From positions 1 to 39,869 of IMG/VR virus record IMGVR_UViG_3300030098_002311: DNA of 39,869 nucleotides. The stretch is one strand, 5' to 3'. The stretch comes from a virus. The notes beneath the pieces were generated by a model that saw nothing but the letters and a program-made list of their open reading frames with translations, did no database searches and was not told where the DNA came from. Of the stretch, positions 654 to 22,272 are shown piece after piece; within the stretch, counting starts at the first letter, position 1; each line of letters begins with the position of its first letter. A program made the translations under genes and the position numbers.

Positions 654-1235
654 ATGGCTAGTGTTGTATCAATTTGCAATAGTGCGTTAAACCAGCTGGG
701 AGCTGCGAGTATTACTGCATTAACAGACAATAGTAAGAACGCAAGATTATGCAACGCTAGGTATGAAACTATTAGGGATGCGGTATATAGAAGTCATCCT
801 TGGAATTGCTTAATGAAAAAACAGCAATTGGCTCAAGATACCGCAACACCCGTATATGGTTTTAAATTTCAATTTACTTTACCTAGTGATTGTCTAAGAT
901 TAATTCATCTTGACGCTTACAATACAGATCACAAAGTAGAGGGTAGAAAAATTCTTTGCAATGAAAGTACAATTAAAATTACTTATGTTGCACAAATTAC
1001 AGATCCAAATGAGTTAGATGTATTAACAAGAGAAACTATATCAGCTGGATTAGCAGCAGATCTTGCTTATGCAATAACAGCTAATTTACAAGTTTCTAAA
1101 TTAATGCAAGAAAAGTATCAATTCAAATTATCTGAGGCTAGACATACAGACGCTAGCGAGGGATATAATATTGATCCTAACAACGGACAAGTCGATCAAA
1201 TCTTAACCGAAGATTTTATAAATAGTAGATTATAA
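654..1235 (+). CDS. Tail adaptor / tail tubular protein A (T7 gp11-like), variant copy
   Basis: A protein of 193 residues of the head-to-tail adaptor type. The N-terminal pattern (ICNSALNQLGAASITAL...NARLCNARYETIRDAVYRSHPW) matches the phage gatekeeper family in which A..C...Y...RD..L..HPW is conserved. It should form the ring between portal and nozzle and help close the capsid after packaging. It is followed 2 nt later by the nozzle gene, as in T7-like phages (gp11-gp12). A second full-length version (39193-39774) is roughly 80% identical over the same length without indels, as expected for alleles of one gene. Confidence 0.85.
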   Translation: MASVVSICNSALNQLGAASITALTDNSKNARLCNARYETIRDAVYRSHPWNCLMKKQQLAQDTATPVYGFKFQFTLPSDCLRLIHLDAYNTDHKVEGRKILCNESTIKITYVAQITDPNELDVLTRETISAGLAADLAYAITANLQVSKLMQEKYQFKLSEARHTDASEGYNIDPNNGQVDQILTEDFINSRL

Positions 1236-1237
1236 TT

Positions 1238-3745
1238 ATGGGAAAACAATTATTAAGCATCCCTAGCTTTACCGCTGGGGAGATGAGCGATAGTATGCAA
1301 GGCAGAACAGATTTTGCCAAGTATTTTTCAGCGGCATCACGAATAGAAAATTTTGTAGTATTACCACATGGACCAATAACAAGAAGACCAGGAACTTATT
1401 TTGTATCAGAAGTTAAAACAAGCTCAGCTAAAACAAGATTAGTAGCTTTCACTTTTTCAACAACTCAAACTTATATTTTAGAATTTGGCAATCAGTACAT
1501 AAGATTTTACAAAGATGATGGACAAATAACATCTGGTGGATCTGCTTATGAAATTTCTACACCTTATACTACTGCTCAACTCTTCGATTTAAAATTCGCA
1601 CAATCCGCAGATGTAATGTATATTTGCCATGAAAGTCACTCAGTTAGAAAATTATCAAGAACTGGACACACATCCTGGACACTTACAGAAGTTGAATTTA
1701 CTAATGGACCATACTTAGACAGCAACTCTACATCTGTCACAATGACACCATCCGCAACATCTGGATCTTCAATTACAATAACAGCCTCAGCTCCTACTTT
1801 TGTTTCTGGAGATGTAAATCGATTAATTAAATTTTCAGATGGTTATGCAAAAATTACTGCTTTTGGTTCAGATACATCTGTCACAGCAGAAGTTAAAGAG
1901 GATTTTGCAAATACTAATGCTGTCACAAATTGGAGCTTAGGAGCTTTTTCTTCTGTCACGGGTCATCCTCGCTGCGTATCATTTTTTGAGCAGCGTCTAG
2001 TTTTTGCTGGCACATCACAACAACCGCAAACAATGTTTTTTTCTAAATCGGGAGATTACGAAAACATGACATCGGGTAGCAATGATGACAATGCAATGAT
2101 TTATACTATTGCGTCAAACCAAGTTAATGCCATCCAGGCTATGAAAGCTACAAGAACTTTAATTGTAATGACAACTGGTGGAGAATACGCAGTATCTTCT
2201 GGAGCTGCTCAAGATGCAATCACACCTACAAACATTAATATCAGAAAACAATCTAACTATGGATCTTCTGGTGTTGATGCCTTATCAATTGGAAACGCCA
2301 CAATTTTTTTACAAAGAGCAAAAAGAAAAATTAGAGAGCTAGCTTATAATTTTGATACAGATGGTTATACAGCTCCCGACTTAACTATTCTTGCAGATCA
2401 TATTTCAGATAGCGGTATTATTGATATGTCATATCAGCAAGAGCCATATTCAATAGTTTGGTGTGTAAGAAATGATGGCGTTATGTCTGGTTTAACTTAT
2501 AACAGATTAGAGAATGTAGTTGCCTGGCACAGACATATTTTAGGTGGCAAATCAGATACTGGCAAAACTATTAAACAACAAAAAATTTCTTTTACCGCAA
2601 ACTCCACAAATGTTTCTACAACAAACAATACTATAGTTTTAACGGGTCATGGTTTAGCAACTGGAGATCCAGTTTATTATTATGCAGCATCAAATGTTAT
2701 TGGCGGATTATCAAATTCAAAAGTTTATTATGTAATATCCGTTGATGCCAATACTATTAAATTAGCAACTTCATCATCCAATGCCTCAGCTGGGACAGCA
2801 ATTAGCTTAACCTCAGCTCCAGGATCAGACACTACTCAATTTATTTATCAAGGCGTAAATATAAATAATAATATTTTATTTGTTTCATCTCACGAATTTA
2901 AAAGTGGAGATCATATTTTTTATGACAATACTGGCACAGCAATTTCTGGTTTAGCAGAAAATACAAAATATTATGTTGAAAAAATAGATGACAATCAAAT
3001 TCAACTTTATACAGACGAGGGTAGAGGTACTATTGTTAATTTAACCTCAGCTCACAGCTCCGAACAAACAGATAAAATTTTAACTCATGCTAAAGTAGAA
3101 AGTGTTGCTTGTATTGATGGCGATACTGATGAGGATCAAGTTTGGGTTATTGTTAATAGATATATTAATGGATCTACAAAAAGATATGTTGAGTATTTTA
3201 CACCTTTTGAATTTAACAAAGACTTAACTGCATTTCATTATTTAGATAGTGGACTAGCTTATTCTGGTGGCGAGACTAGCAGCTTATCTGGACTTACACA
3301 TTTAGAGGGAGAGGTAGTTGATATTATTGGAGAGGGATCAGTACAAACCTCAAAATCAGTTTCCTCTGGTGCTATTAGCCTGGACACAGCTATTGAAGAG
3401 GCAAAAGTAGGATTATTATATTCATCTGATTTACAAACAATGAGATTAGATGAGGGTTATACAGAGACAACTCAAACTAAAACAAAAAGAGTTTATGATT
3501 TGTCTGTAAGATTTCAAGATAGTGTTGGAGCTAGCGTTGGACCAAGTGGAGATAATTTAACTGCAATAGATTTTAGAGATAGTGGAGCATCAATGGATTT
3601 ACCCGTGCCATTATTTACTGGAGACAAAGCTGTTGAATTTGATGTTGGACACGGCACAGAGGGATTAATTTATGTAAAGCAGCCTCAAGCGCTGCCAATG
3701 ACTATCTTAGGAATATATCCAAGATTGGAGACAGAGAATGTCTAA
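1238..3745 (+). CDS. Tail nozzle / tail tubular protein B-like protein (835 aa)
   Basis: The N-terminus (SFTAGEMSDSMQGRTDFAKY...ENFVVLPHGPITRRPGTYF) is the signature of large phage nozzle/stabilisation proteins (functional analogue of T7 gp12), where GE.S....GR.D...Y......ENF.....G...RRPGT is conserved. It should form the distal tail tube. Residues about 451-532 and 540-613 are two copies of a beta-rich module (TGHGLATGDPVYY...YYVISVDANTIKL / SSHEFKSGDHIFY...YYVEKIDDNQIQL), each ending in LTSA, so the protein has an internal tandem duplication. It starts 2 nt after the adaptor gene and overlaps the next gene by 8 nt. Confidence 0.85.
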   Translation: MGKQLLSIPSFTAGEMSDSMQGRTDFAKYFSAASRIENFVVLPHGPITRRPGTYFVSEVKTSSAKTRLVAFTFSTTQTYILEFGNQYIRFYKDDGQITSGGSAYEISTPYTTAQLFDLKFAQSADVMYICHESHSVRKLSRTGHTSWTLTEVEFTNGPYLDSNSTSVTMTPSATSGSSITITASAPTFVSGDVNRLIKFSDGYAKITAFGSDTSVTAEVKEDFANTNAVTNWSLGAFSSVTGHPRCVSFFEQRLVFAGTSQQPQTMFFSKSGDYENMTSGSNDDNAMIYTIASNQVNAIQAMKATRTLIVMTTGGEYAVSSGAAQDAITPTNINIRKQSNYGSSGVDALSIGNATIFLQRAKRKIRELAYNFDTDGYTAPDLTILADHISDSGIIDMSYQQEPYSIVWCVRNDGVMSGLTYNRLENVVAWHRHILGGKSDTGKTIKQQKISFTANSTNVSTTNNTIVLTGHGLATGDPVYYYAASNVIGGLSNSKVYYVISVDANTIKLATSSSNASAGTAISLTSAPGSDTTQFIYQGVNINNNILFVSSHEFKSGDHIFYDNTGTAISGLAENTKYYVEKIDDNQIQLYTDEGRGTIVNLTSAHSSEQTDKILTHAKVESVACIDGDTDEDQVWVIVNRYINGSTKRYVEYFTPFEFNKDLTAFHYLDSGLAYSGGETSSLSGLTHLEGEVVDIIGEGSVQTSKSVSSGAISLDTAIEEAKVGLLYSSDLQTMRLDEGYTETTQTKTKRVYDLSVRFQDSVGASVGPSGDNLTAIDFRDSGASMDLPVPLFTGDKAVEFDVGHGTEGLIYVKQPQALPMTILGIYPRLETENV
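1253..1329. repeat. 77-bp exact repeat, internal copy (contig closure point)
   Basis: Bases 1253-1329 equal 39793-39869, the last 77 bases of the window. Immediately upstream the copies differ (TTATTA here, CTTTTA there). The exact block stops where the contig stops. This is the pattern left by an assembly graph loop with a 77-base overlap, and defines a circular map of 38,540 bp. Confidence 0.9.
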
Positions 3746-4190
3746 TATTGAAATAGTGCAATTTGAAAATAAGCACGCTGAACAAATATTAGATATTGGA
3801 TTAAATAGCGAATTACTAGAACTTAAGCCAGAGCATAGAAAATATGCTTATTATTTGGAAAGTGTTGGGATGTCGTTCACGGGTCTAATCAATGGAAAAC
3901 CTATTGCGGCTGGAGGTGTCTTTCATCTCTGGGATGGCGTTGCCGAGGGGTGGGTCTTAGCAACAAAAGAAATTTTTAACTATCCAATTTTCTGCGCAAA
4001 GCATATAAAGAATAGAACTGAAATAATTATAAATACTCACAATATAAAAAGATTACAAACAAGCGTGAAAGCAGATTGCCAAATGGCGTTAAGATTTGCT
4101 GGATGGCTAGGTCTAAAGCCAGAGGGTCGTATGGTTAATTATGGTCCCGATGGTTCAGACTTTATTAGATATGCGAGGATAATAAAATAA
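3738..4190 (+). CDS. gp13-like internal virion protein with GNAT-like fold (150 aa)
   Basis: The size, the position after the nozzle, and the pattern (FTGLINGKPIAAGGVFHLWDGVAEGWVLATKEI...RLQTSVKADCQMALRFAGWLGLKPEGRMVNYGPDGSDFIRYARI) match the DUF2833/T7 gp13 family, which resembles N-acetyltransferases. In T7, gp13 is needed for particle assembly. Whether this one acetylates anything cannot be told: the GNAT R/Q-x-x-G-x-G/A acetyl-CoA loop is not obvious. It overlaps the upstream gene by 8 nt and shares one base with the next start (TAATG), so it is part of the virion operon. Confidence 0.75.
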   Translation: MSNIEIVQFENKHAEQILDIGLNSELLELKPEHRKYAYYLESVGMSFTGLINGKPIAAGGVFHLWDGVAEGWVLATKEIFNYPIFCAKHIKNRTEIIINTHNIKRLQTSVKADCQMALRFAGWLGLKPEGRMVNYGPDGSDFIRYARIIK

Positions 4191-4645
4191 TGAGTTTTTT
4201 TGGAGACATATACGCTGGGAAAGCTGCTAACGCAGCAGCAAATTATAACGCTAAGATAATGGAGCGTAATGCTGCGATGAAAGAGCAAGAGGCTAAACAG
4301 ATTATGTCTGTTCACAATGAATATAGCCTCCCTAAATTTGATCGAACAATGGAGGAGATCCAGGGTGCTACCAAAACATCTTACCTGGTTAGGGGTGCAG
4401 CTCTCTCTGGAACACCATTAGAAATGATTTACGAACAAGAAATCCAATTACAAACTGATAGAGATATTATGAATTACAATGCTGAGAATGCAAGAGACCA
4501 GGCAAACAATGCAGCGATCCAGGCTAGAGCAGATGCTGATATGCAAAGATGGAGAGGTAAAGTTGCTAAGAAAGCATCTTACTATGCAGCTGGCGCAAGT
4601 TTATTGGATCTTGGAATGTCAGCTAAAACAGCGGGGATTGTATAA
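4190..4645 (+). CDS. Internal virion protein, gp14-like (151 aa)
   Basis: A small Ala-rich helical protein (GKAANAAANYNAKIMERNAAMKEQEAK ... NAENARDQANNAAIQARAD) in the slot of T7 gp14, between the gp13-like protein and the large core proteins. Long amphipathic helices and a small hydrophobic C-terminal patch (YYAAGASLLDLGMSA) are typical of ejection proteins that insert in the outer membrane at infection. TAATG overlaps link it to both neighbours. The assignment rests on gene order and composition, with no decisive motif. Confidence 0.65.
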   Translation: MSFFGDIYAGKAANAAANYNAKIMERNAAMKEQEAKQIMSVHNEYSLPKFDRTMEEIQGATKTSYLVRGAALSGTPLEMIYEQEIQLQTDRDIMNYNAENARDQANNAAIQARADADMQRWRGKVAKKASYYAAGASLLDLGMSAKTAGIV

Positions 4646-6768
4646 TGTCAATTAAACTTTACAAATCACAATTAACACCAACAACTAACGACAGCAATGT
4701 TGTAGATACAAGACAAATAAATTTAGGCGAGGCTCAATCTATTGGCAAAGCCATGAAAGGTATGCTGCAATCTGGAGAAAAACTTTATATCAAACACCTG
4801 GACATTAAATCTGATAATGAGCTTTTAGAAAAATCAAAAGAGATAATGAATGGCAAAGGAGATAATGAGGGTTTATCTGCAACAATTATTAAAGCTAGCG
4901 AGATGAAAGATGATAAAGCAGCTCTTCAATTATATAATGATAAATGGAAGTCTTTACTAGAAAGCTCTAAAAATGAAGTCTCCTGGATGACAAAAAAGAA
5001 ATTGTCATTATGGATGTCTAAACAACAATTAAAAGATACTAACGCTATTAAAGTTGCAACGACAACTAATATGATTAACTCTTTAAGACTTAATCATTTA
5101 GACCAAATAAATACTTGGTCTAAATCTATTATTTATGGATCAACAGCTTTGGAAAAAAATGCAGCTGCAACAGATCTTAAAAATTTTTTTAATAGCGATA
5201 AAGCAAAAGAAATATTTGGCGATGGTTTAGATAAATTAAAAAAAGATACAAATAGAAATATAGCTTTTTATGGATATAAAAATGTTTCTTTAAAAGATCA
5301 AGCTGCAGCTTTAGAGGCAGCTAAAAAAGATAAAAGATTAGATATAGAAGATGTTGAAAAATTAAAAACTCATTTTAAAACTTCTAAAACTTCAAGCAAT
5401 AATCTTAATAAAGATAATGTTTCTAAAATGGAAAGCGCTTTAGAAAGCGGCATCATGTACGATCAAGACGAATGGAATGCTGCATGGCAAACTGCTACCG
5501 AGGGAAACGATCAAAAAACTTTATTAAAATTAAAAAATATGGCTGATGATGCAGCAATTTATTCTCAACTTAGCACAATGTCTGTAGCTGAAATTGAGAA
5601 TAGAAGAAATATTTTACAAGAATATGTAAATAAAAATTTGCGTGAGGGTAAAGGTACTGAATTACAATATGCAAGAAATTTAGAAATAACTAAAAAATAT
5701 CTTGCGAAACTAACTACAGATCTTAATAAAGATCAATTAACAACAGCTCATCAAAAAGGATTAATAACTTTAAATGAAATTGGTTTTGAAAAAATGCTGG
5801 CTCCAGGCGGAAGTGTTGATGATTTTACAAGCTCTATAAATGAAAGAATTGCTAAAGCAAAATCAGTAGCAAGTTTTTATAAAAGAGAAGTTAAATTTTT
5901 TACTGCAAATGAGGAAAAACAAATAAGTGCTGCTTTTGCAGCTGCAGATACTAAAGATGAATTAATACAAATTTCAACAATTTTAGTTAAAGCATTTGGT
6001 ACAGATAGCGATCTAGCTTTTAAACAGCTTACAAAAAATAACACAATACTTTCTACTATTGGCGGACTTACTATTATGAATGATTACGAACCAAGCCAAA
6101 ATGTAGATTTAATTGCAGAGGGATTTTTAATTTCTAAAAATAAACAATTAGCTCCAATATATAAAATTAAAACTACTGATACGGGATATTTAGCTGCAGT
6201 AGCAAAATATCAAAAAACATTTTTGGATAACGAAGATACTTTTAACAATATTGTTCAAGCAGCTAATTATATTTACATGGCTCAATTAAGAAACGATGGC
6301 AAAACTACAAATGATTTTAAAGCTAGTGATTGGGAAAAAGCATTTATTATGGCATCTGGTGGTAATAAAAAAGATGGATTTATATTTGATAGTAATTTCG
6401 GTGGTTATGACAAAGACACAAGAGGAAACCAGGTTCACATTCCGCCATGGTTAGAAAACGGAAAGTTTGAGGATATTGTAGAAAGATTTAAAGCAGATGA
6501 AAATTTATGGTTAAAAGCATCTGTACTTGAAAGCAATGCTATTATTGGAGATGGTGCATTAAAAGGAGAAGAGATTACTTTAGCAGAAATTTTTAAAGAG
6601 GATGATCCTTATTTTGTAAGTGTTGGAAATGGTAAATACAAAGTAGCTATGGGGGAAAATCCTACTGAGCCAGGCTCAGAGCCAGAATATTTAATGAATA
6701 AAGATGGCGGCTATTTCATTATTAACATTAATAAAATTAGAGACGAAATAATTACGGGAATGAAATAA
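4645..6768 (+). CDS. Large internal virion/ejection protein (707 aa)
   Basis: A Lys/Asn-rich, predominantly helical protein without membrane segments or recognisable enzymatic motifs. Its middle (residues about 200-480) alternates charged helices such as DQAAALEAAKKDKRLDIEDVEKLKTHF. The position corresponds to the first large core protein (gp15 slot) of T7-like phages, which builds the periplasmic channel for DNA ejection; that role is inferred from synteny only. The next gene overlaps by one base (TAATG). Confidence 0.6.
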   Translation: MSIKLYKSQLTPTTNDSNVVDTRQINLGEAQSIGKAMKGMLQSGEKLYIKHLDIKSDNELLEKSKEIMNGKGDNEGLSATIIKASEMKDDKAALQLYNDKWKSLLESSKNEVSWMTKKKLSLWMSKQQLKDTNAIKVATTTNMINSLRLNHLDQINTWSKSIIYGSTALEKNAAATDLKNFFNSDKAKEIFGDGLDKLKKDTNRNIAFYGYKNVSLKDQAAALEAAKKDKRLDIEDVEKLKTHFKTSKTSSNNLNKDNVSKMESALESGIMYDQDEWNAAWQTATEGNDQKTLLKLKNMADDAAIYSQLSTMSVAEIENRRNILQEYVNKNLREGKGTELQYARNLEITKKYLAKLTTDLNKDQLTTAHQKGLITLNEIGFEKMLAPGGSVDDFTSSINERIAKAKSVASFYKREVKFFTANEEKQISAAFAAADTKDELIQISTILVKAFGTDSDLAFKQLTKNNTILSTIGGLTIMNDYEPSQNVDLIAEGFLISKNKQLAPIYKIKTTDTGYLAAVAKYQKTFLDNEDTFNNIVQAANYIYMAQLRNDGKTTNDFKASDWEKAFIMASGGNKKDGFIFDSNFGGYDKDTRGNQVHIPPWLENGKFEDIVERFKADENLWLKASVLESNAIIGDGALKGEEITLAEIFKEDDPYFVSVGNGKYKVAMGENPTEPGSEPEYLMNKDGGYFIININKIRDEIITGMK

Positions 6769-9317
6769 TGAGTATATTCTTTGATGAAGATAAAGCTCTT
6801 ACTCCATCAACAAACGAGAGCTGGACTAAGGGACCAAGAACAAACATATCTGAAAATTTTAAATCTGTAAGTAAAGCCTTTTCCATGACCGAGCTTACAC
6901 AATCTGAAATAAGAAATAAATCAGAGGAATATGGAAATGTAATACAGATCCTTAGAGAAAACGGCAACACAAATTTTGTAGATCCAATAGATCAAGTATT
7001 TAATTGGCAGACGGGAACTGGTTTTGATAATGAAACGGGTTTTGTTGAAACAAGATCTTATAACGAATTAGAAACGGATTTTTGGAATAAAGTTGAAGAG
7101 GCTAAAAAAAATAATCCAGATCTAAATTTTAAATTGCAAGAGGCTGGTCTTGATACCCAGGATAATATGTATAAGACCATTGCAACAAAAGCTAAAGATA
7201 GTTGGGTTGATAATGCCTCTGTAAGTGAGAGAGCTACATTGGGCGGTAAAATTTTCGGTCAATTTGGCGGTATGGCTGTCACAGCATTTAAAGATCCCTG
7301 GATGCAGCTAGGGTTAGTTGCATCTTTTGGTTATTCTGTACCAGCAACATTCGGAGCTGCAGCTTGGAAAGTTGCAAGATATGAAATGGTTATAGGAGCT
7401 GTTGCTGAAACAATGATCCAATTAAAAGCTCAGCCTTACAGAAAAGAATTAGGTTTTACAGATGCTGGTTTAGAAACTGGTTTAAGAAATGTATTTATGG
7501 TTGCTGGTGCATCAGCAGTTTTATCTCCAGTTTTATTAGGTGTATTTAAAGCATTTGGTAAAGGAATTGATGTTGGTAAAAAACATCTTTTTAAATTATC
7601 AGATAATGAGCTGCAACAAGTTGGAAAAGAATTAGGAGAACTTAATCCTAAATACAAAGATACGACTTTAGATAATTACCAAATACCAAGAAAAGATAAT
7701 CCATTTCCAGATAATGCAGCGGGTAGAACTGAACATAGAGAAAGATTAGATCTTGCTGTTAAATCTTTTAATGAGGGAACTGAATTAGATTTACCACCAG
7801 CAAAAAATCCAGCTACAAATATTGAACCTCCAATTAGTTTTAAAGTTGGAGAATTTCAAGATGTATTTGATGGACAAGGTAATTTAGTTAAAACTCAAAT
7901 TGTAAAAGTAAGCTCATCTGGAAATTCTGCTAAAATAAAATTTAATGATGGATCTGAAAAAGTAATTACTTTAGATCCAAAATCTGGTTCTTATCAAAAC
8001 ATAAGAAATCCTAATTATGTTATTAGATCCTCTGGTGTAAATGCTCAAGGAAAATCTGTATCTTCATTATCTAAAGCTGAGCTAAACGAAATTAGATCAA
8101 AATTACTTAAAAAAAAAGAAGATCTTGAAAAAACTGGTCAAACAAATCAAGGTGTTTATGCAGACACATTACAAGATTTAAACTCTCTTGATTTTAATGT
8201 TAATAAAATTTCAACAGATACAAATGCTCCAGGAGTTAATAAAGCTGAGTTTAATAGAAATGAAAGTAAATTAGCTGAGGATCTAAACAATGTAAAAGAT
8301 TTTGATGTACCTACTGAGGCTGCTTATAGAAATCAAGCCTCACTATCAGAGGAAACAATGTTTGATGCTGGTACATCTGCAGCCATTAGAGCTGAGGCTG
8401 AGGCTGGAGCTGCAGCTAAAACATCTCCAATCATTAATTTAGGAGAAAAAACCCAAGACTTAGTATCAAAATCCCAAGTCACAGATACAGCTCGGTCATC
8501 AGTTGTTTTAGCAACTGCACAAAGCAAGCCACCGCTCATTCGTGGGCTAGATAATAAGTCTGTTGGCGATTTCAATTCCATAGGTATTAGGTTATATCAA
8601 AAATCTAATGATTATAAAGAGATTTACAATACTTTATCTAAAAAATTAGAGCCTCTGAAAAGAGACTTACAAGCAATTACAGCAAAATATGATGGCAATT
8701 TAGCGGCAAGAGTTAAAGATAAAGCTAAAATTGACGAAAAATTGGCTATTAAAAAGGAATTACAGCCACAAAATATCCCAGATTGGTTAGGTGCTAGAAT
8801 AAGTGTAGATACAATAACTCAAGCAAAACTCTTACTTGCTGAGCTAAACAAGACTTATAAGCTCATAGAAATTGACGATTTCTTAGATGATGTTGGTAGA
8901 ACTCAAAGAAAACATCCAACACAATATAGACGGATCCATACCCAGGCTTTAACAAAAGATGGTTATACTTTTGAGCTGCAAATTTCTCTTAAAGAATTAG
9001 ATCCAATTATAGATAAATCTCACGCTGTTTATAAAAAAATTACATACCAAAGAAATAGTATGTCAATGGATGAGTGGAATAAAACTTTAAAAGAGCAAGC
9101 TAAAGTAGAGGCGGATATGAAAAACGCTTACTTTAAAATTAAAGATAAAGAATTTACAAGATTTAATACTACTAACGATATTGATATTCCTTATGTTGTT
9201 GGAACAAGATTAGATGAAAAAGGAGAGATTGTTCCTTTATTAACAACAGCCAGAGAGGCATTTGAACAAGATGCAAAAAATGCAACTATGTTTAAAAGAT
9301 TGGAGAACTGCATATGA
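6768..9317 (+). CDS. Ejection protein with a RelA/SpoT-like domain (849 aa)
   Basis: The first half looks like a virion ejection protein, with a hydrophobic stretch at about residues 165-270 (LGLVASFGYSVPATFGAAAW..., NVFMVAGASAVLSPVLLGVF) that could cross a membrane. The C-terminal part has the ordered signature of RelA/SpoT-type nucleotidyltransferases: R648-V-K-D-K-A-K-I-D-E-K-L (RvKs..Si..Kl box), D672-W-L-G-A-R-I (D..G.Ri; metal site in RelA/SpoT), Y720-R-R-I-H724 (gYqSlH), E736-L-Q-I (EiQiRt, catalytic Glu) and a final HAVYK. All key acidic residues are kept, so a (p)ppGpp-type or tRNA-pyrophosphate-type transferase activity is possible. The gene overlaps the next by 4 nt (ATGA). Delivery with the DNA is inferred from its place among ejection proteins. 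Confidence 0.75.
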   Translation: MSIFFDEDKALTPSTNESWTKGPRTNISENFKSVSKAFSMTELTQSEIRNKSEEYGNVIQILRENGNTNFVDPIDQVFNWQTGTGFDNETGFVETRSYNELETDFWNKVEEAKKNNPDLNFKLQEAGLDTQDNMYKTIATKAKDSWVDNASVSERATLGGKIFGQFGGMAVTAFKDPWMQLGLVASFGYSVPATFGAAAWKVARYEMVIGAVAETMIQLKAQPYRKELGFTDAGLETGLRNVFMVAGASAVLSPVLLGVFKAFGKGIDVGKKHLFKLSDNELQQVGKELGELNPKYKDTTLDNYQIPRKDNPFPDNAAGRTEHRERLDLAVKSFNEGTELDLPPAKNPATNIEPPISFKVGEFQDVFDGQGNLVKTQIVKVSSSGNSAKIKFNDGSEKVITLDPKSGSYQNIRNPNYVIRSSGVNAQGKSVSSLSKAELNEIRSKLLKKKEDLEKTGQTNQGVYADTLQDLNSLDFNVNKISTDTNAPGVNKAEFNRNESKLAEDLNNVKDFDVPTEAAYRNQASLSEETMFDAGTSAAIRAEAEAGAAAKTSPIINLGEKTQDLVSKSQVTDTARSSVVLATAQSKPPLIRGLDNKSVGDFNSIGIRLYQKSNDYKEIYNTLSKKLEPLKRDLQAITAKYDGNLAARVKDKAKIDEKLAIKKELQPQNIPDWLGARISVDTITQAKLLLAELNKTYKLIEIDDFLDDVGRTQRKHPTQYRRIHTQALTKDGYTFELQISLKELDPIIDKSHAVYKKITYQRNSMSMDEWNKTLKEQAKVEADMKNAYFKIKDKEFTRFNTTNDIDIPYVVGTRLDEKGEIVPLLTTAREAFEQDAKNATMFKRLENCI

Positions 9318-11866
9318 GTTTTAAACAATGTATTCTTAATGGTATTAAAGAGGGTTTAATTTCTGAAAAACAAGGCGAAACTTTATACAAAAATTTTGAT
9401 GAGATCAAAGACTTTTATCAATATAGAAAAAATCTAAATAAACCAGAGGCTGAGAAAAAAGCTGCAAGGGAAGTGTACGATGCTTTGAAAATAGAAGAGG
9501 CAGAGAAGTTAAGATACACTTTGCAGATGAGAGCCAAAATGAATGAAATAGAATTTGATTTTAAAAATTATAGAAATTCAAATGGCGAAGTAGATTACGC
9601 AAACGCTTATAGAGCTTACCTGGCTCAAGATAACTGGTCTTATAAACCTAACATTGAAAACCAAACAATGATTGAGAGAAACAAAGCTCATGAATTGATG
9701 GGTAATTTAATGGAACAAAATAGATATGGTTGGGGTGGAATGGTATCCAGGAAACAAAAAGCCAATAAAAAATCAATGGTTAGAGAGATCATGGGCGAAA
9801 GAACTGGAAATGTTAATGCTCAAGAATTAGCCAAAGCATGGAAAGAAGTAGCTGAACATTTAAGAAAAAGATTTAATTATTTTGGTGGTAAAATTTTATC
9901 GAGAAAAGATTGGGGACTACCACAAATGCACGATACATTATCTGTTAGATCGGTGCAAAAAGATGATTGGATTGATTATATTTTACCAAAATTAGATATT
10001 GAAAAAATGGCAGATGAAAGAACTGGTTTGCCATTTACAGATAGAAGTATTCGAGAGGCTTTAAGTGAAGTGTACGAAAGCATATCAACTGAGGGTATGG
10101 CAACATTTAAACCTGGAACTAACAGCTTTGGTAAAGCTCTACATAATAGAAGATTAGATCATAGATTTTTAGCTTTTAAAAGTGCAGACGATTGGATGGA
10201 ATATCAAGCTAGATTTGGTAATGGAGATCCATATAAAACAATGTTAGATCACATAAATAGCATGAGTAGAGATATTGCTATGCTTAAGATCCTTGGACCA
10301 AATCCAGACGCAATCCATTCCTGGGCTGTTGCTAGTATAAAAAAACAATCAGCTATTGATGCTGCTAACGAGGCAAAAGGATTATTTAAAAGAAAAAAAA
10401 CTATTATTAAAGATAGTAGATTAAAAAAAGATGGCGTTAAAATTTATAGAACTGAACAAGATAGAACTAATGCAATTTTAGAAAATTCAAAAAATTTATT
10501 AGCATACCATAAGGGACATTTAAGCAAACCCGTTGATGGTTTTTTTGGTAATACCTTTGCTGGTTTAAGGCAGATCCTTACAGCTGCACAATTAGGAGGA
10601 GCTGCGATCATGACTATTACAGATCAGCATTGGATGAGAATGACAGCTAAGTTTAATGGATTACCAGCAACAAAAGCGAATATAACTTCTGTAAAACAAT
10701 TAGCAGAGGGTGTTAAAAAAGATAAAAAATTAGCAAAGCTAGCAATTAAACTTGGTTTAGGTGCTGAAATGTGGAGTGCAGTATCAGCTGTTCAAACTAG
10801 ATATTTAATGGATATAGATGCTCCGTTATGGTCTAAAAGAGTTTCTGATGCAATACTAAGAGGATCTGGATTATCACATTCCACACAATCTAATAAATGG
10901 GCGTTTGGAATGATGGCGCTAGGAGAACTTGCTGAAAATGTAAATTCTCCATTTGCAAAATTAAATAAAAATTTACAAACACAATTTAAAAAATATGGTA
11001 TTGGCGAAAAAGAGTGGGATATAATTAGAAAAACAAAATTATATGATGCTGGTATAGATGATCCATCTATGGCTGGCAAAGGAATGACTTATCTAAGACC
11101 AGATGATATTTTCCAAAGAGCTGATTTAGATGCTGGAACAAGAGAATATTTAACAACAAGATTAATGACATGGATTGCTAATGAAACTAATTTTGCTGTT
11201 CCTACTGCATCTGCAAAAGGTAGAATTACTTTAGCTGGAGACGCTAGACCAGGAACTATTAAAGGAGAAATAATCAATTCTGGTTTAATGTATAAAAACT
11301 TTGCAATTACTTTAGGCATGACACACATGGCTAGAGGTTTGCAGCAACAAGGATTTGCTGGAAAAGCTAAATACCTGGTTCCTATGATTATTGGTGGAAC
11401 AATAATGGGAGCTTTAGCTTATGAAATTAAACAAGTTGCAGCTGGTAAAAAACCAACTCCTATTTCAAAAATGGGAGTAAGATACTGGATTAATGCTATG
11501 GTTTATGGTGGTGGATTAGGAATATTTGGAGACTTCTTATTCCAAGACACTAATAGATATGGCGGATCTTTGGCAAAAACTATTGCTGGACCAGTTATAG
11601 GTTTCTTTGGAGATCTAATAAATTTAACATTTGGTAATGCAGCTCAGCTTGTAAGTGGCGAAAAGACTAATGCTGGCAAGGAGCTGGTTGCTTTTATACA
11701 AAGATATACTCCAGGATCTAACCTTTGGTACTCAAGATTAGTCACAGAAAGGATTATATTTGATACCCTGGAGAAGATGTTAAATCCTAATTTTAATGCA
11801 GATAATAGGCGAAATATTAACAGATTAAGGAAGAGAACGGGACAAGAATATTGGTGGTCGCCATAA
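9314..11866 (+). CDS. Large internal virion/ejection protein (850 aa)
   Basis: The last gene of the tail/core operon. The N-terminus (CILNGIKEGLISEKQGETLYKNFDEIKD) and C-terminus (PGSNLWYSRLVTERIIFDTLEKMLNP...RRNINRLRKRTGQEYWWSP) follow a pattern shared by very large ejection proteins of many podoviruses. Hydrophobic segments at about residues 697-715 (LVPMIIGGTIMGALAYEI) and 735-790 suggest membrane insertion. No lytic transglycosylase motif of the T7 gp16 kind is visible. It overlaps the upstream gene by 4 nt, and a terminator-like hairpin follows it. Confidence 0.7.
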   Translation: MSFKQCILNGIKEGLISEKQGETLYKNFDEIKDFYQYRKNLNKPEAEKKAAREVYDALKIEEAEKLRYTLQMRAKMNEIEFDFKNYRNSNGEVDYANAYRAYLAQDNWSYKPNIENQTMIERNKAHELMGNLMEQNRYGWGGMVSRKQKANKKSMVREIMGERTGNVNAQELAKAWKEVAEHLRKRFNYFGGKILSRKDWGLPQMHDTLSVRSVQKDDWIDYILPKLDIEKMADERTGLPFTDRSIREALSEVYESISTEGMATFKPGTNSFGKALHNRRLDHRFLAFKSADDWMEYQARFGNGDPYKTMLDHINSMSRDIAMLKILGPNPDAIHSWAVASIKKQSAIDAANEAKGLFKRKKTIIKDSRLKKDGVKIYRTEQDRTNAILENSKNLLAYHKGHLSKPVDGFFGNTFAGLRQILTAAQLGGAAIMTITDQHWMRMTAKFNGLPATKANITSVKQLAEGVKKDKKLAKLAIKLGLGAEMWSAVSAVQTRYLMDIDAPLWSKRVSDAILRGSGLSHSTQSNKWAFGMMALGELAENVNSPFAKLNKNLQTQFKKYGIGEKEWDIIRKTKLYDAGIDDPSMAGKGMTYLRPDDIFQRADLDAGTREYLTTRLMTWIANETNFAVPTASAKGRITLAGDARPGTIKGEIINSGLMYKNFAITLGMTHMARGLQQQGFAGKAKYLVPMIIGGTIMGALAYEIKQVAAGKKPTPISKMGVRYWINAMVYGGGLGIFGDFLFQDTNRYGGSLAKTIAGPVIGFFGDLINLTFGNAAQLVSGEKTNAGKELVAFIQRYTPGSNLWYSRLVTERIIFDTLEKMLNPNFNADNRRNINRLRKRTGQEYWWSP

Positions 11867-11964: not shown

Positions 11965-13023
11965 TTGACTATATCAACGCTAGTCGTAAAAAATTCATAT
12001 AATGGAGACGGATCAGCAACTCAGTTTGCGTATCAATTTCCTATACACTCAACATCTGAGATCAAAGTTATTGAAAGATCTGCAGCTGGTGTAGAAACAA
12101 TAAAAGTTTTAGGAACTCATTATAGCATCACAGACAATGGAGCTGCTGGTGGACAAGTTAATTTTAACACAGCTCCAGCAAGTGGTGTTGAGGTAGTATT
12201 AATTAGAGATACAAACTTAACGCAAGAAGTTGACTATATTGCTAACGATCCTTTCCCAGCTGAAACGCATGAGGGAGCGATTGATAAATTAACTTTGCAG
12301 ATCCAGGAGCTGCAAGAAGAGTTAGATAGAACTTTAAAACTTTCAAGAACTAACAGCATTGCTAGCTCAGAGATTACAGAAAAAGCAAGTCAAAGAGCTA
12401 ACAAAGTTTTATCATTTAATCCATCTGGAGAAATTTTATTAGATCAAGAATTAGGAGAGTTTAAAGGAAACTGGGCGGCATCAACTTATTATGCTGCAAG
12501 ATCGATTGTAAAAGATAGCTCAAACAATAATGTCTATCTTGCCAATACAGCTCACACATCCTCTGGTTCAACTCCATTATCTTCAAACTCAGATATTGGA
12601 AAATGGGATTTATTAGTAGATGCAGCTGCAGCTGCTGCTAGTCAAACATCCGCAGCTGCTAGTGAGGCTGCAGCCATAGCTGCAAAAACAGCTGCTGAGA
12701 CAGCGGAAACAAATGCCGAAACTGCAAACACAAATGCTCAATCTGCTTTAACTTCTGCGAACTCAGCTTTAAGCTCAGCTCAAGCAGCACAAACTGCAGC
12801 TGAAAGTGCTTTAGACCAATTCGATGATACATACCTAGGATCTAAAACTTCTGATCCAAGCGTTGATAATGATGGAGACGCTATAACTGAGGGAGATATG
12901 TATTATAATTCATCATCAAACAAACTAAGAATTTATAGCGGGGGACAATGGAAAGACGCTGCTGTAGATACAACTGCATTCGCTCAAGCGGGATTTAGTA
13001 TTGCTATGAGTGTAGCTTTATAA
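11965..13023 (+). CDS. Tail fibre protein with T7 gp17-like N-terminal domain (352 aa)
   Basis: It uses a TTG start with AAAGGAG 8 nt upstream. Residues 1-140 (SYNGDGSATQFAYQFPIHSTSEIKVI...VLGTHYSITDNG..GGQVNFNTAPASGVEVVLIRDT...QEVDY) are the gp17-type domain that attaches fibres to the tail. Residues about 218-285 form an Ala-rich coiled coil (SEAAAIAAKTAAETAETNAETA). The C-terminus (DDTYLGSKTSDPSVDNDGDAI..GDMYYNSSSNKLRIYSGGQW) is a widespread fibre ending. It has no large receptor-binding domain, so it likely serves as an adaptor for the adhesins encoded downstream. Confidence 0.9.
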   Translation: MTISTLVVKNSYNGDGSATQFAYQFPIHSTSEIKVIERSAAGVETIKVLGTHYSITDNGAAGGQVNFNTAPASGVEVVLIRDTNLTQEVDYIANDPFPAETHEGAIDKLTLQIQELQEELDRTLKLSRTNSIASSEITEKASQRANKVLSFNPSGEILLDQELGEFKGNWAASTYYAARSIVKDSSNNNVYLANTAHTSSGSTPLSSNSDIGKWDLLVDAAAAAASQTSAAASEAAAIAAKTAAETAETNAETANTNAQSALTSANSALSSAQAAQTAAESALDQFDDTYLGSKTSDPSVDNDGDAITEGDMYYNSSSNKLRIYSGGQWKDAAVDTTAFAQAGFSIAMSVAL

Positions 13024-16772: not shown

Positions 16773-16991
16773 ATGACAAAAATAATAGTTATTGAACCAA
16801 ATAAAGAACCAGTACTTAGAGATATGACAGCAGATGAACAATCTGAACACGATAGCAGAATTGATAATACTGCTGAATTGGAAGTAGCTAAAAAACAAGC
16901 TGATATAGATTTAAAAGCTAGCGCAAAACAAAAATTAATAAACGGAGAGGCATTAACCGAGGATGAGGCTAATGTAATGGTAGGATTATAA
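16773..16991 (+). CDS. Small fibre-associated protein, cassette copy 1 (72 aa)
   Basis: An acidic 72-residue protein. Its C-terminus (LKASAKQKLINGEALTEDEANVMVGL) matches that of the protein at 17785-18048 (TKASAKAKLIAGEPLTQEEADTIVL). The KASAKAKLIAGE.LT.EEA..IV ending is very common in small proteins encoded after phage and prophage fibre genes. It may be an assembly factor or chaperone for the adjacent fibre; that is inference from linkage. Its stop overlaps the start of the second cassette (TAATG). Confidence 0.65.
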   Translation: MTKIIVIEPNKEPVLRDMTADEQSEHDSRIDNTAELEVAKKQADIDLKASAKQKLINGEALTEDEANVMVGL

Positions 16992-17785
16992 TGGCAACAC
17001 TAAATTTAGGCAGACTAAAACCAGTATTCAGAGGTTCGTGGAATAACGCAACATCTTACAGCGTTGATGATATTGTAGTTAGAAATAATCAATCTTATAT
17101 TTCTATTCAAGCTGGCACTAACCAGGATCCAGCAACTGCTACTGCTTACTGGACATTGATGGCTGCAGCGGGAACAGATGTCGGAGCTACACTTACAACT
17201 CAAGGCGATCTTTTATATCGAGATGGATCTGGATTACAGAGACTAGCAAAAGGTACAAGCGGTCAAGTTTTAAAACAAGGCACTAATCATCCCGAATGGG
17301 GAACTGATATTGGCGGAAAAATTGGTCAAGTTTTAAGCTCATCTGTGACTTCTGCTCAAAGTACAACTTCATCAAGCTGGACAGATATGACTGGAGGATT
17401 TTCAATAGCGATAACACCAGCATCAACAGCAAGTAAAATTTTATGGAGTTTCCACATTGCTGGAAATTCTAGCGACCAATATACAAAAGTTAAAATAGTT
17501 TATGGAGATGGTTCAGACTTAAACACTCAAGCCATTGGAGATGCTGCTGGAAGTAGAATTAGAGCAACTATTGGAGGTATATACAGCTCTGGTTCTGACA
17601 CGGGGGTACAATATTCAATGCAAGGATTAGATAGTCCCAACACAGCCTCATCTATTACATACAAATTACAATGGCAAATACCAGGAAGTAATACAACTTA
17701 TGTAAATAGAAGAAGTCACGATAACGATCATTCTGAAAATGACAGATCTCATTCAAGTATAACTTTAATGGAGGTATTAGCATAA
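16991..17785 (+). CDS. Receptor-binding fibre, cassette copy 2 (264 aa)
   Basis: Paralogue of the fibre at 15915-16766. Residues 1-95 (NLGRLKPVFRGSWNNATSYSVDDIVVRNNQSYISI...YWTLMAAAGTDVGATLTTQGDLLYRDGSGLQRLAKGT) align throughout with the first copy. From residue 96 it continues GQVLKQGTNHPEWG and then a different beta domain ending SHSSITLMEVLA. Shared base and different tip is the usual sign of receptor-range diversification. It overlaps both neighbouring genes by one base (TAATG). Confidence 0.7.
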   Translation: MATLNLGRLKPVFRGSWNNATSYSVDDIVVRNNQSYISIQAGTNQDPATATAYWTLMAAAGTDVGATLTTQGDLLYRDGSGLQRLAKGTSGQVLKQGTNHPEWGTDIGGKIGQVLSSSVTSAQSTTSSSWTDMTGGFSIAITPASTASKILWSFHIAGNSSDQYTKVKIVYGDGSDLNTQAIGDAAGSRIRATIGGIYSSGSDTGVQYSMQGLDSPNTASSITYKLQWQIPGSNTTYVNRRSHDNDHSENDRSHSSITLMEVLA

Positions 17786-20581: not shown

Positions 20582-20586
20582 TGGTG

Positions 20587-20660
20587 TCTGGGCGGCTGGA
20601 TTTGAACCAGCGCTCCCCTGGTCCCAAACCAGGTGCGATACCAGACTTCGCTACGCCCAG
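20587..20660 (-). tRNA. tRNA-Pro (anticodon TGG)
   Basis: A complete cloverleaf of 74 nt on the minus strand: acceptor CTGGGCG/CGCCCAG (7 bp, perfect), D stem GCG/CGC, anticodon stem CCTGG/CCAGG with loop TTTGGGA (anticodon TGG), variable loop GGAGC, T stem GCTGG/CCAGC with loop TTCAAAT, discriminator A. CCA is not encoded directly after the discriminator (the DNA reads A-CACCA). It lies next to the integrase, so it is likely also the attachment-site homology: a phage carrying the host tRNA sequence can integrate there without destroying it. Confidence 0.93.
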
Positions 20661-20929: not shown

Positions 20930-21100
20930 TTATCTTTTAGCGAATTTAACTATAGCATCTGGAAGTATATCTCCCTTGCTATCAAAATTATTTAGGTATT
21001 CTTGGTATAATTGCTGAACTCTCCAATCAGCATTAAAGGTAGGAACATGAGCCATCTCCAGGTGTAATTTAAAAAGGAGATAGCTCATGGGTTGCGCCAT
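20930..21100 (-). CDS. Small protein encoded after the integrase (56 aa)
   Basis: A 56-residue ORF starts on the last base of the integrase stop (TAATG) and reads MAQPMSYLLFKLHLEMAHVP, then TFNADWRVQQLYQEYLNNFD, then SKGDILPDAIVKFAKR. The composition is that of a folded helical protein, not random sequence, and the overlap indicates translational coupling to the integrase. It is the last gene of the leftward operon. I do not recognise a family; a role in excision control is conceivable from position alone. Confidence 0.65.
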   Translation of the reverse strand: MAQPMSYLLFKLHLEMAHVPTFNADWRVQQLYQEYLNNFDSKGDILPDAIVKFAKR

Positions 21101-22272
21101 TAGTTAAGGAGCATCTTATCAATGGCTGCAATTCTCTCAGACTTGTTATTGTCAAGATCTTTGTAATACCATTTATTTGGCGTATCCATATTGGACCAGC
21201 CAAATCTAAGCATGATTTGTTTGTCTGTTAAAACCATTTGATCTCTCAAATATGAGTAGCTGAATTTTCTGAATGGAGACATTCCATTCTGCCAAACTAT
21301 CCCACATCTCTTAGCTGCTCTCTGTATTCTCTTTTTTGCAGAGGCTTTAGTAATACCAAATAGCATTTTGTATTTACCTTGCTTTTTAGCAACTGAACAT
21401 TCCATCCAGTTTTTAAGCATGATTGCCAAACTTTTAGAGATCTCTATGGTTCTTTTAGAGCTAGCAGTTTTTAAGAAATTCTCTCTTAAATTATCCCATT
21501 TATCTAAGCTGTGATTTGTAGAGATAACAGCTGGTCTGCTTTTTAGATCTATATCTGAGTAAGTTAAACCTAACAGCTCATTCAATCTGCAGCCAGTTTC
21601 AGCAGCTGTTTGGAATAATACCTGGTTTAATGGATCTTGCTCAGCATTAACTATTTTTAAAACATCCTTATATTTAGGCTGCCATTTTGGTTTAGTATTC
21701 TCATCCTGGAAAAAGTTTTTGTTAAATTTCCAATTAAGAATAGCTGGATCAATAACCCATTTTCTGCCATGGCAATATCTAATAAACATTTTAAAGTTAG
21801 CAACAGCATCTTTGATTGCTTTTTTGCCTAGCTTTTTAGTGCCTCTGATTACCTCAGTTTTACCACCAGGAAGATTTTTAACTACCATTCCTTTAGAGCC
21901 TATAAGAGCTGGTATATAGCTTTTTTCAAAATCATAGAGGGTATAGTCGGTCATGAGCGATTTGCTTATGTGTGGCTCTATATGGTTCTTTATCATGCCA
22001 CAAATAACTAATCTAAACTCATGTGTCTTTAGCTCATCTTCCAATACATCTTTTTTATAGGCTTTAAAAGCTGTCTCAAAAGTAATCTTTTCGGGAGCTG
22101 CTAGGTGTGGTTCCATCTGTCTTAAACTTTCAGCAAATGAATACGCAGCTCTTTTTTGGTTTAGGTCATAAGTAGCTTTAAGATGTTTTTTTCCTTTGTC
22201 ATCTTTAACCATGACTTTAAACTTATAACCGCCAGCCATTTTTTTCTTTTCTACCCAAGCCATCTTAAGCAT
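21100..22272 (-). CDS. int: Tyrosine recombinase / phage integrase (390 aa)
   Basis: The N-terminal arm-binding part (YKFKVMVKDDKGKKHLKATYDLNQKRAAYSFAESL) and a core-binding helical part precede a catalytic domain. Visible catalytic residues: R229 (AETGCRLNELLGL), a Lys in the beta-hairpin (KTASSKRTIEI), R335 (SPFRKFSYSYLRDQ) and a tyrosine pair Y369/Y370 (NKWYYKD). The two histidines of the canonical box are replaced: S332 stands where HxxR has His, and W359 where LGH has His (W is tolerated in several recombinases). It should insert the phage at the tRNA-Pro locus. It overlaps the upstream gene by one base. Confidence 0.9.
   Translation of the reverse strand: MLKMAWVEKKKMAGGYKFKVMVKDDKGKKHLKATYDLNQKRAAYSFAESLRQMEPHLAAPEKITFETAFKAYKKDVLEDELKTHEFRLVICGMIKNHIEPHISKSLMTDYTLYDFEKSYIPALIGSKGMVVKNLPGGKTEVIRGTKKLGKKAIKDAVANFKMFIRYCHGRKWVIDPAILNWKFNKNFFQDENTKPKWQPKYKDVLKIVNAEQDPLNQVLFQTAAETGCRLNELLGLTYSDIDLKSRPAVISTNHSLDKWDNLRENFLKTASSKRTIEISKSLAIMLKNWMECSVAKKQGKYKMLFGITKASAKKRIQRAAKRCGIVWQNGMSPFRKFSYSYLRDQMVLTDKQIMLRFGWSNMDTPNKWYYKDLDNNKSERIAAIDKMLLN

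What the first reader, a model, noticed from the sequence alone, without database searches (positions are those of the whole stretch)
8709..9080. RelA/SpoT-like nucleotidyltransferase domain inside a putative DNA-ejection protein
The 849-aa protein keeps the RVK...K-I-x-x-K-L box (R648 on), D672..GAR, Y720RRIH and E736LQI in the right order, including the metal and catalytic acidic residues. If ejected with the DNA, it could synthesise alarmone-like nucleotides or modify tRNA (as some small toxic RSH enzymes do) at the moment of infection. A host-modulating enzyme built into the virion core would be unusual.
Basis: partly seen in the sequence, partly recalled or inferred. Interest (0 to 1): 0.75.

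Follow-up and report, generated by a model that had tools for sequence, protein, structure and literature searches.

The report
Alarmone-synthetase domain in phage ejection protein
A family of marine phages, probably infecting SAR11 bacteria, carries a complete alarmone-synthetase-type (RelA/SpoT) enzyme domain inside a protein of the DNA-injection core, at a position where related phages carry other toxin-like enzymes, so the virus may deliver a growth-control enzyme along with its DNA.

Summary
Residues 648-757 of the 849-aa protein (6768-9317, +) match Pfam RelA_SpoT above its cut-off (35.2 vs 27 bits). An AlphaFold model of residues 600-770 matches only RelA/SpoT-type synthetases among its 50 best PDB hits. 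The whole ATP (pyrophosphate-donor) site, plus acceptor-side Tyr720 and His724, is invariant in 28 distinct homologous domains down to 44% identity.

By synteny the protein is one of two gp16-position core/ejection proteins of an epsilon15/VP5-like podovirus. All 19 loci found through the neighbouring gene alone carry the domain. In more distant relatives (38-47% identity in the neighbour) the same place, between a shared N-terminal module and a shared C-terminal tail, holds Zeta-toxin-like kinases, ADP-ribosyltransferases, a second divergent RelA/SpoT family, or nothing. The cassette has recently recombined between phages. So the slot looks like an exchangeable cargo bay.

Virion-linked RelA/SpoT domains are already known (MuF-Apk2 toxins, polyvalent proteins). 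New here are the podoviral ejection-protein carrier, near-universality in one marine clade, a guanosine-type acceptor motif and no immunity gene. Enzymatic activity, product and delivery are inferred, not shown.

The parts
6768..9317 (+). 849-aa 'slot' protein at the gp16-like ejection position (carrier of the RSH domain)
   Evidence: ORF; overlaps the genes on both sides (ATG at the preceding stop, next ATG inside its stop); N-terminus homologous to VP5 gp17, SI2 and gut-phage slot proteins
6768..7757 (+). conserved N-terminal module (about aa 1-330), with one strongly hydrophobic helix around aa 242-260 (7491-7547)
   Evidence: hhalign/hmmsearch to slot proteins of other podoviruses; Kyte-Doolittle peak 2.17
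8565..9077 (+). RelA/SpoT-type synthetase domain as modelled (aa 600-770)
   Evidence: AF2 pLDDT 83; Foldseek PDB all RSH synthetases
8709..9038 (+). Pfam RelA_SpoT match (aa 648-757) with syn motifs R648-x-K650...K658, D672..G675-A-R677, Y720-R-x-I-H724, E736-x-Q738
   Evidence: invariance in 28 distinct domains
9165..9314 (+). shared C-terminal tail (aa 800-849) ending in a conserved Cys (..MFKRLENCI)
   Evidence: same tail pattern in all slot proteins whatever the cargo
9314..11866 (+). 850-aa downstream partner, phrog_684 virion structural protein (gp17 position of epsilon15/phiV10)
   Evidence: PHROGs E=1e-156; 110 phage records
4645..6768 (+). 707-aa core protein (gp15 position), phrog_992 head protein
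   Evidence: synteny with phiV10
3738..4190 (+). small internal virion protein (phrog_4177, phrog_308)
4190..4645 (+). small internal virion protein (phrog_418)

Best explanation
The 849-aa protein is a core (ejection) protein of an epsilon15/VP5-type podovirus. Its N-terminal module and C-terminal tail build it into the virion core, and between them it carries an exchangeable enzyme cargo. In this clade the cargo is an active RelA/SpoT-type pyrophosphokinase. A few copies would enter the host with the DNA and transfer pyrophosphate from ATP to the 3'-OH of an acceptor nucleotide, most likely GDP/GTP, giving (p)ppGpp. That would trip the host's stringent response at entry: rRNA synthesis falls, and RNA polymerase and nucleotides are freed for the phage. 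Shown here: domain, fold, intact donor site, conservation, synteny and cargo exchange. Inferred: packaging, ejection into the cytoplasm, catalytic activity, acceptor identity and benefit.
For: Domain and fold. Donor site: FaRel2 residues reported to bind ATP/Mg (R64, K66, K74, D90, G93, R95, E145, Q147; PMC11782079) have counterparts R648, K650, K658, D672, G675, R677, E736, Q738, with identical spacing inside each motif; all are invariant in 28 distinct domains. Acceptor side: Tyr720 and His724 are invariant; the YxSxH-type histidine is the guanosine-type syn3 signature, where adenosine-type Apk2 has GxN (PMC12226406). The region aligns through to SH..YK with the Rel synthetase domains of Pelagibacter-related genomes. 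An arginine is either at 722 (with Ser740, 13 sequences) or at 740 (with Ala722, 15), never both or neither, a swap between neighbouring motifs that fits a maintained active site. Purifying selection: dN/dS about 0.15-0.3. Carrier: and synteny with phiV10, VP5, Skadi; overlapping genes, no immunity gene. Slot: all 19 loci found by the neighbour protein carry the domain. More distant relatives carry Zeta_toxin (12 of 33 proteins scanned), ART-PolyVal (2), a second RSH-like family (13 of 48 loci; model pLDDT 91.6, best PDB hit Tas1) or no extra domain in the same place. Third-codon identity between window and L004 is 0.98-1.00 over aa 651-750 but 0.55-0.88 through aa 650 and 0.72 in the next gene, i.e. 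recent cassette exchange. Host link: one copy in a Candidatus Pelagibacter MAG contig; 17 of 20 relatives of that MAG have their own Rel.
Against: No experiment shows the protein in a virion or in the host cytoplasm. Homology of the slot protein to T7 gp16 itself was not detectable, and that of the downstream protein only marginally. The serine of the syn1 motif (FaRel2 S70) is a lysine here, and the acceptor loop (aa 709-718) is poorly modelled. A strong stringent response or tRNA block at entry could also harm the phage. Slot cargos in some relatives are peptidoglycan hydrolases, so part of the slot protein may stay in the periplasm, where ATP is absent.
Confidence: 0.5

Rival explanations
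1. The domain is a tRNA 3'-CCA pyrophosphokinase (toxSAS/CapRel type) delivered to stop host translation at entry.
For: CapRel is among the Foldseek hits (TMq 0.60); the donor site is identical to that of FaRel2; the strand carrying syn3 is arginine-rich (YRRIH/YRAIH).
Against: Blocking translation at entry would also stop the phage; no antitoxin or hydrolase gene is present; the syn3 His is the guanosine-type signature. A tRNA-specific signature could not be tested.
Confidence: 0.2
2. The domain makes (p)ppApp and drains ATP, like Tas1 and the MuF-Apk2 prophage toxins, acting as a toxin against the host or against competitors.
For: Tas1 is among the PDB hits and is the best hit of the second RSH-like family found in the same slot; MuF-Apk2 is a virion-linked precedent.
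Against: Apk2 signatures (syn3 GxN, syn2 RYT, syn4 YH) are absent; this family has YRxIH and GAR/GTR. Apk2 and Bxa loci carry adjacent immunity genes, here none.
Confidence: 0.13
3. The domain is enzymatically dead and serves only as a structural or packing module of the core.
For: Core proteins need bulk modules; the syn1 Ser is not kept; some relatives have no cargo at all, so the slot is not needed for assembly.
Against: All donor-site residues are invariant while most of the domain varies; the linked R722/S740 against A722/R740 swap; other cargos in the slot are enzymes of conflict systems.
Confidence: 0.1
4. The enzyme is active but works in the producing cell late in infection, or against host defence or a co-infecting phage, rather than as an entry effector.
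For: The gene sits in the late structural operon with overlapping genes, so it is made in the producing cell too; the genome looks temperate (integrase; HTH repressor-like protein).
Against: Fusion to a virion core protein and cargo exchange among different effectors fit delivery better than late intracellular action, which would not need the fusion.
Confidence: 0.12

Closest known systems
MuF-Apk2 prophage toxins (S. pneumoniae, B. caccae, M. haemolytica, P. multocida; PMC12226406)
   Same: RSH-type synthetase domain fused to a phage structural (head) protein, presumably packaged
   Different: Carrier is MuF (portal-associated minor head protein), not a podoviral ejection protein; cargo sits C-terminally; adenosine-type syn motifs, exclusively (p)ppApp; with immunity genes iapK/aph1. 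Here syn3 is His-type, cargo is internal, no immunity gene
Phage polyvalent proteins with RelA/SpoT domains (Iyer et al. 2017, PMC5512222)
   Same: Large phage proteins combining interchangeable conflict domains (RelA/SpoT, ART, ParB-like); predicted to be injected
   Different: There described for prophages of Spirochaetes and epsilon-Proteobacteria and in MuF fusions; the passages read do not describe podoviral core proteins or marine phages; here there is a single catalytic cargo and no ParB-like module in the window clade
T7 gp16 / epsilon15 gp16-gp17 ejection (core) proteins
   Same: Genome position, neighbouring internal virion proteins, mosaic enzymatic domains (transglycosylase in T7 gp16)
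   Different: Known enzymatic domains there are peptidoglycan hydrolases (PMC8954989); sequence homology to T7 gp16 not detectable for the slot protein
Tas1 (type VI effector, (p)ppApp synthetase) and toxSAS FaRel2/CapRel
   Same: Fold and donor-site residues; use of an RSH enzyme as weapon
   Different: Delivery by T6SS or a toxin-antitoxin module rather than a virion; acceptor motifs differ (from adenosine-type Apk) or could not be compared (FaRel2)
SAR11 host Rel (bifunctional RSH, about 570-710 aa)
   Same: Synthetase motifs align end to end, including SH..YK
   Different: No hydrolase or regulatory domains in the phage protein; highly divergent sequence, so not a recent capture

Membership tests
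RelA/SpoT (RSH) synthetase domain superfamily | Profile match above the curated threshold | tested here: met
   PF04607 35.2 bits vs 27; 5 of 33 slot proteins scanned match it, the window clade
RelA/SpoT (RSH) synthetase domain superfamily | RSH synthetase fold | tested here: met
   AF2 pLDDT 83; all 50 listed PDB hits are RSH synthetases
RelA/SpoT (RSH) synthetase domain superfamily | Donor-site residues R, K, K, D, G, R, E, Q and base-stacking Y | tested here: met
   Invariant in 28 distinct domains; mapped on FaRel2; the syn1 Ser is not kept
RelA/SpoT (RSH) synthetase domain superfamily | Pyrophosphokinase activity | not testable with these tools
   No assay
Guanosine-type alarmone synthetase | syn3 SxH, syn2 AVR, syn4 IR signature | tested here: inconclusive
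   His724 and Arg677 kept; 722 is R/A rather than S; 740 is R in 15 and S in 13 sequences
MuF-Apk2 toxins | N-terminal MuF domain | tested here: not met
   No MuF hit in Pfam
MuF-Apk2 toxins | syn3 GxN / syn2 RYT / syn4 YH adenosine signature | tested here: not met
   YRxIH, GAR/GTR, QIS/QIR against the signatures in PMC12226406
MuF-Apk2 toxins | Adjacent immunity genes | tested here: not met
   Neighbouring genes overlap; no extra ORF of immunity type in 654-11866
Phage polyvalent proteins | Large phage protein in which conflict domains are exchanged between relatives | tested here: met
   Zeta_toxin, ART-PolyVal, RSH, RSH-like B or none in the same slot; L008 carries RSH plus an ART-like segment (sub-threshold)
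Phage polyvalent proteins | Packaged and injected | not testable with these tools
   Inferred from position only
Podoviral ejection (core) protein, epsilon15 gp16 / T7 gp16 position | Gene order: two small internal virion proteins, gp15-size protein, slot protein, phrog_684 protein | tested here: met
Podoviral ejection (core) protein, epsilon15 gp16 / T7 gp16 position | Sequence homology to T7 gp16 | tested here: inconclusive
   Slot N-module homologous to VP5 gp17 (hhalign 96.6%), which matches phrog_342, the T7 gp16-type family (E=2e-10); direct comparison with T7 gp16 negative

The most novel reading that the evidence does not exclude
Podovirus ejection cores contain a dedicated, exchangeable effector bay, flanked by a constant N-module and a constant Cys-ending tail. 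SAR11 phages use it to deliver a guanosine-type alarmone synthetase with the first DNA, switching the host's stringent response on before any phage gene is expressed.
Probability: 0.3. Interest if true: 0.8.

Novelty: new variant of a known kind. Interest (0 to 1): 0.58.

Why it matters
It would extend virion-borne RSH effectors from MuF head proteins to the ejection core of podoviruses that appear to infect SAR11, among the most abundant bacteria in the ocean. It would also give a testable reason why some pelagiphages could control host rRNA and nucleotide economy from the first minute of infection. The ribosome-poor infected SAR11 cells reported in PMC11066056 are one phenomenon worth testing against it (no link shown here). 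The slot comparison gives a simple way to mine podoviral cores for other injected enzymes. My own estimate, assuming the roughly 3 gp16 copies annotated for T7, kcat about 1 per second and a 0.01 cubic-micrometre cell: about 600 product molecules (100 micromolar) in a few minutes, so a handful of enzyme copies could matter in so small a host.

Tried and rejected
A chance motif match was rejected. Direct homology of the slot protein to T7 gp16 was not detectable; the downstream protein gave only weak colinear matches, so 'split gp16' is left as a suggestion. BLAST of the full slot protein in annotated phages found nothing, and of the domain alone nothing significant; the relatives are in metagenomic viral contigs and one MAG. 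A search of viral contigs with too divergent an alignment failed and was replaced by A4. Recent capture from the host was rejected: the domain is highly divergent from SAR11-type Rel. A missing-immunity-gene search of the structural operon found none, and a Pfam scan of ten other window ORFs found no alarmone hydrolase or antitoxin. An apparent low divergence between window and L004 was recognised as recombination rather than constraint. Literature searches for RelA/SpoT in podoviral ejection proteins found no report, within an open-access library only.

Full report
Observation. The ORF 6768-9317 (+) encodes 849 aa. Pfam RelA_SpoT matches residues 648-757 at 35.2 bits, above its cut-off of 27; it is the only Pfam family in the protein. 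A profile of 16 homologous domains retrieves GTP pyrophosphokinases first from the PDB sequences (E=1.9e-4). The AlphaFold model of residues 600-770 (pLDDT 83.1, pTM 0.77; residues 709-718 poor) matches RSH synthetases in all 50 listed Foldseek hits: Rel, RelA, RelP, RelQ, Tas1, CapRel and an exported Streptomyces SAS.

Active site. I collected 28 distinct homologous domains (minimum 44% identity to the window). R648, K650, K658, D672, G675, R677, Y720, R721, H724, E736 and Q738 are invariant; only 34 of 174 columns are. The residues that hold ATP and magnesium in FaRel2 (R64, K66, K74, D90, G93, R95, E145, Q147; PMC11782079) map on R648, K650, K658, D672, G675, R677, E736, Q738, with the same spacing within each motif. 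The syn1 serine (S70) is not kept. A linked change is notable: 13 sequences, the window among them, have Arg722 with Ser740 (YRRIH...QIS) and 15 have Ala722 with Arg740 (YRAIH...QIR), with no exceptions. In canonical RSH these positions are Ser and Arg of YxSxH and ExQIR on neighbouring strands, so one arginine seems to have moved between the strands while the site was kept. These sequences are related, so this may be as few as one evolutionary event.

Carrier. Upstream are tail tubular-type proteins, two small internal virion proteins and a 707-aa protein matching phrog_992; downstream and overlapping is an 850-aa protein of phrog_684, virion structural protein. The same order occurs in phiV10/epsilon15-type phages, VP5, Shamal and YeP4, and partly in the SAR11 phage Skadi. 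For epsilon15, gp4, gp20, gp15 and gp17/16 are described as its packaging/injection device (PMC12391199); phiV10p19, at the slot position, is annotated as similar to epsilon15 gp16. The slot protein's N-terminal module is homologous to VP5 gp17 (hhalign 96.6%, E=7e-10), Dunaliella virus SI2 and gut phages; VP5 gp17 and the Skadi protein match phrog_342, the T7 gp16-type family. Direct similarity to T7 gp16 was not detectable. So 'ejection protein' is a well-supported inference, not a demonstration.

Cargo slot. All 19 loci found with the neighbour protein alone (at least 67% identity in that protein) carry the RSH domain. With a broader alignment I reached relatives at 38-47% identity. Their slot proteins keep the N-module and the C-terminal tail (...T.R......D...L.RL..C) but carry, in between, a ParB-like segment (DGHQR, my reading; region also matched by phrog_10691) and then different cargo. 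Of 33 slot proteins scanned, Pfam finds Zeta_toxin in 12, RelA_SpoT in 5 (the window clade) and ART-PolyVal in 2. Thirteen of 48 distant loci carry a second RSH-like family without the syn1 Arg and the syn3 His, whose model (pLDDT 91.6) is closest to the (p)ppApp toxin Tas1. Some, such as L112, L114 and L129, show no extra domain. Relatives from gut phages carry a glycosyl hydrolase 108 or a transglycosylase-family segment in the same protein. L008 has the RSH domain plus an ART-like segment. BFVD also lists RSH folds in long phage proteins named DdrB-like and ART-PolyVal-like. Between the window and L004, third-codon identity is 0.98-1.00 over aa 651-750 against 0.55-0.88 through aa 650 and 0.72 in the downstream gene: the catalytic cassette has recently moved between phages.

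Host and lifestyle. The record is a 39,869-base virus contig. A close relative lies in a Candidatus Pelagibacter MAG contig, and the downstream protein has relatives in SAR11 phages. Seventeen of 20 genomes related to that MAG have their own Rel, whose synthetase motifs align with the phage domain through SH..YK, although the sequences are very divergent. The window also has an integrase, an HTH repressor-like protein and a tRNA-Pro gene, so it is probably temperate.

Mechanism. Best reading: an active pyrophosphokinase is built into the ejection core, enters with the DNA and makes an alarmone, most likely (p)ppGpp because the acceptor motif keeps the guanosine-type histidine; adenosine-type Apk2 enzymes have GxN there (PMC12226406). 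Steps shown: domain, fold, donor site, conservation, exchangeability, genomic position. Steps inferred: packaging, cytoplasmic delivery, activity, acceptor, benefit. Rivals are tRNA 3'-end modification, (p)ppApp toxicity, an inactive structural module, and late or defence-related action; each has a named test.

Known and new. RelA/SpoT domains in phage polyvalent proteins and fused to MuF were described in 2017 (PMC5512222), and MuF-Apk2 toxins have been assayed (PMC12226406). This family fails the Apk2 membership tests (no MuF, no adenosine signature, no immunity gene). It fits the broader notion of a polyvalent, virion-associated effector. What appears new, within the open-access papers searched, is the podoviral ejection-protein carrier with an exchangeable cargo bay and the fixation of an RSH enzyme across one marine clade. 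I therefore call it a new variant of a known kind.

Noticed in passing
L008:8282-9436 (slot protein of IMGVR_UViG_3300030382_000825): The RSH-carrying slot protein has an extra segment after the RSH domain that resembles ART-PolyVal (19 bits, below the 31.2 cut-off): two effector-like domains in one protein.
   Followed up: partly
L101:4997-5641, L121:4847-5503 and 11 further loci: A second, divergent RelA/SpoT-like family in the same slot of more distant phages, confidently modelled (pLDDT 91.6) and closest to Tas1; it lacks the syn1 Arg and syn3 His and has conserved DEG...GYFDRK-type motifs.
   Followed up: partly
slot proteins of the loci (e.g. L095, L105): Zeta-toxin-like (P-loop) kinase domains in podoviral slot proteins: 12 of 33 scanned.
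   Followed up: partly
C-termini of all slot proteins; window 9165-9314: A constant C-terminal tail (IP...D..GE....T.R......D...L.RL..C) in slot proteins regardless of cargo, perhaps a packaging or assembly tag; the downstream protein also starts with a conserved Cys motif (MSFKQCI).
   Followed up: partly
window 8709-9080 against L004: Near-identical third codon positions over the catalytic core only, indicating recent recombination of the RSH cassette between otherwise diverged phages.
   Followed up: yes
window 20586-20660 (-) and 21100-22272 (-): A tRNA-Pro(TGG) gene next to an integrase gene, possibly the attachment site.
   Followed up: no
window 11965-13023 and 16991-17785: Two proteins with weak (sub-threshold) CBM_5_12 carbohydrate-binding matches.
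   Followed up: no
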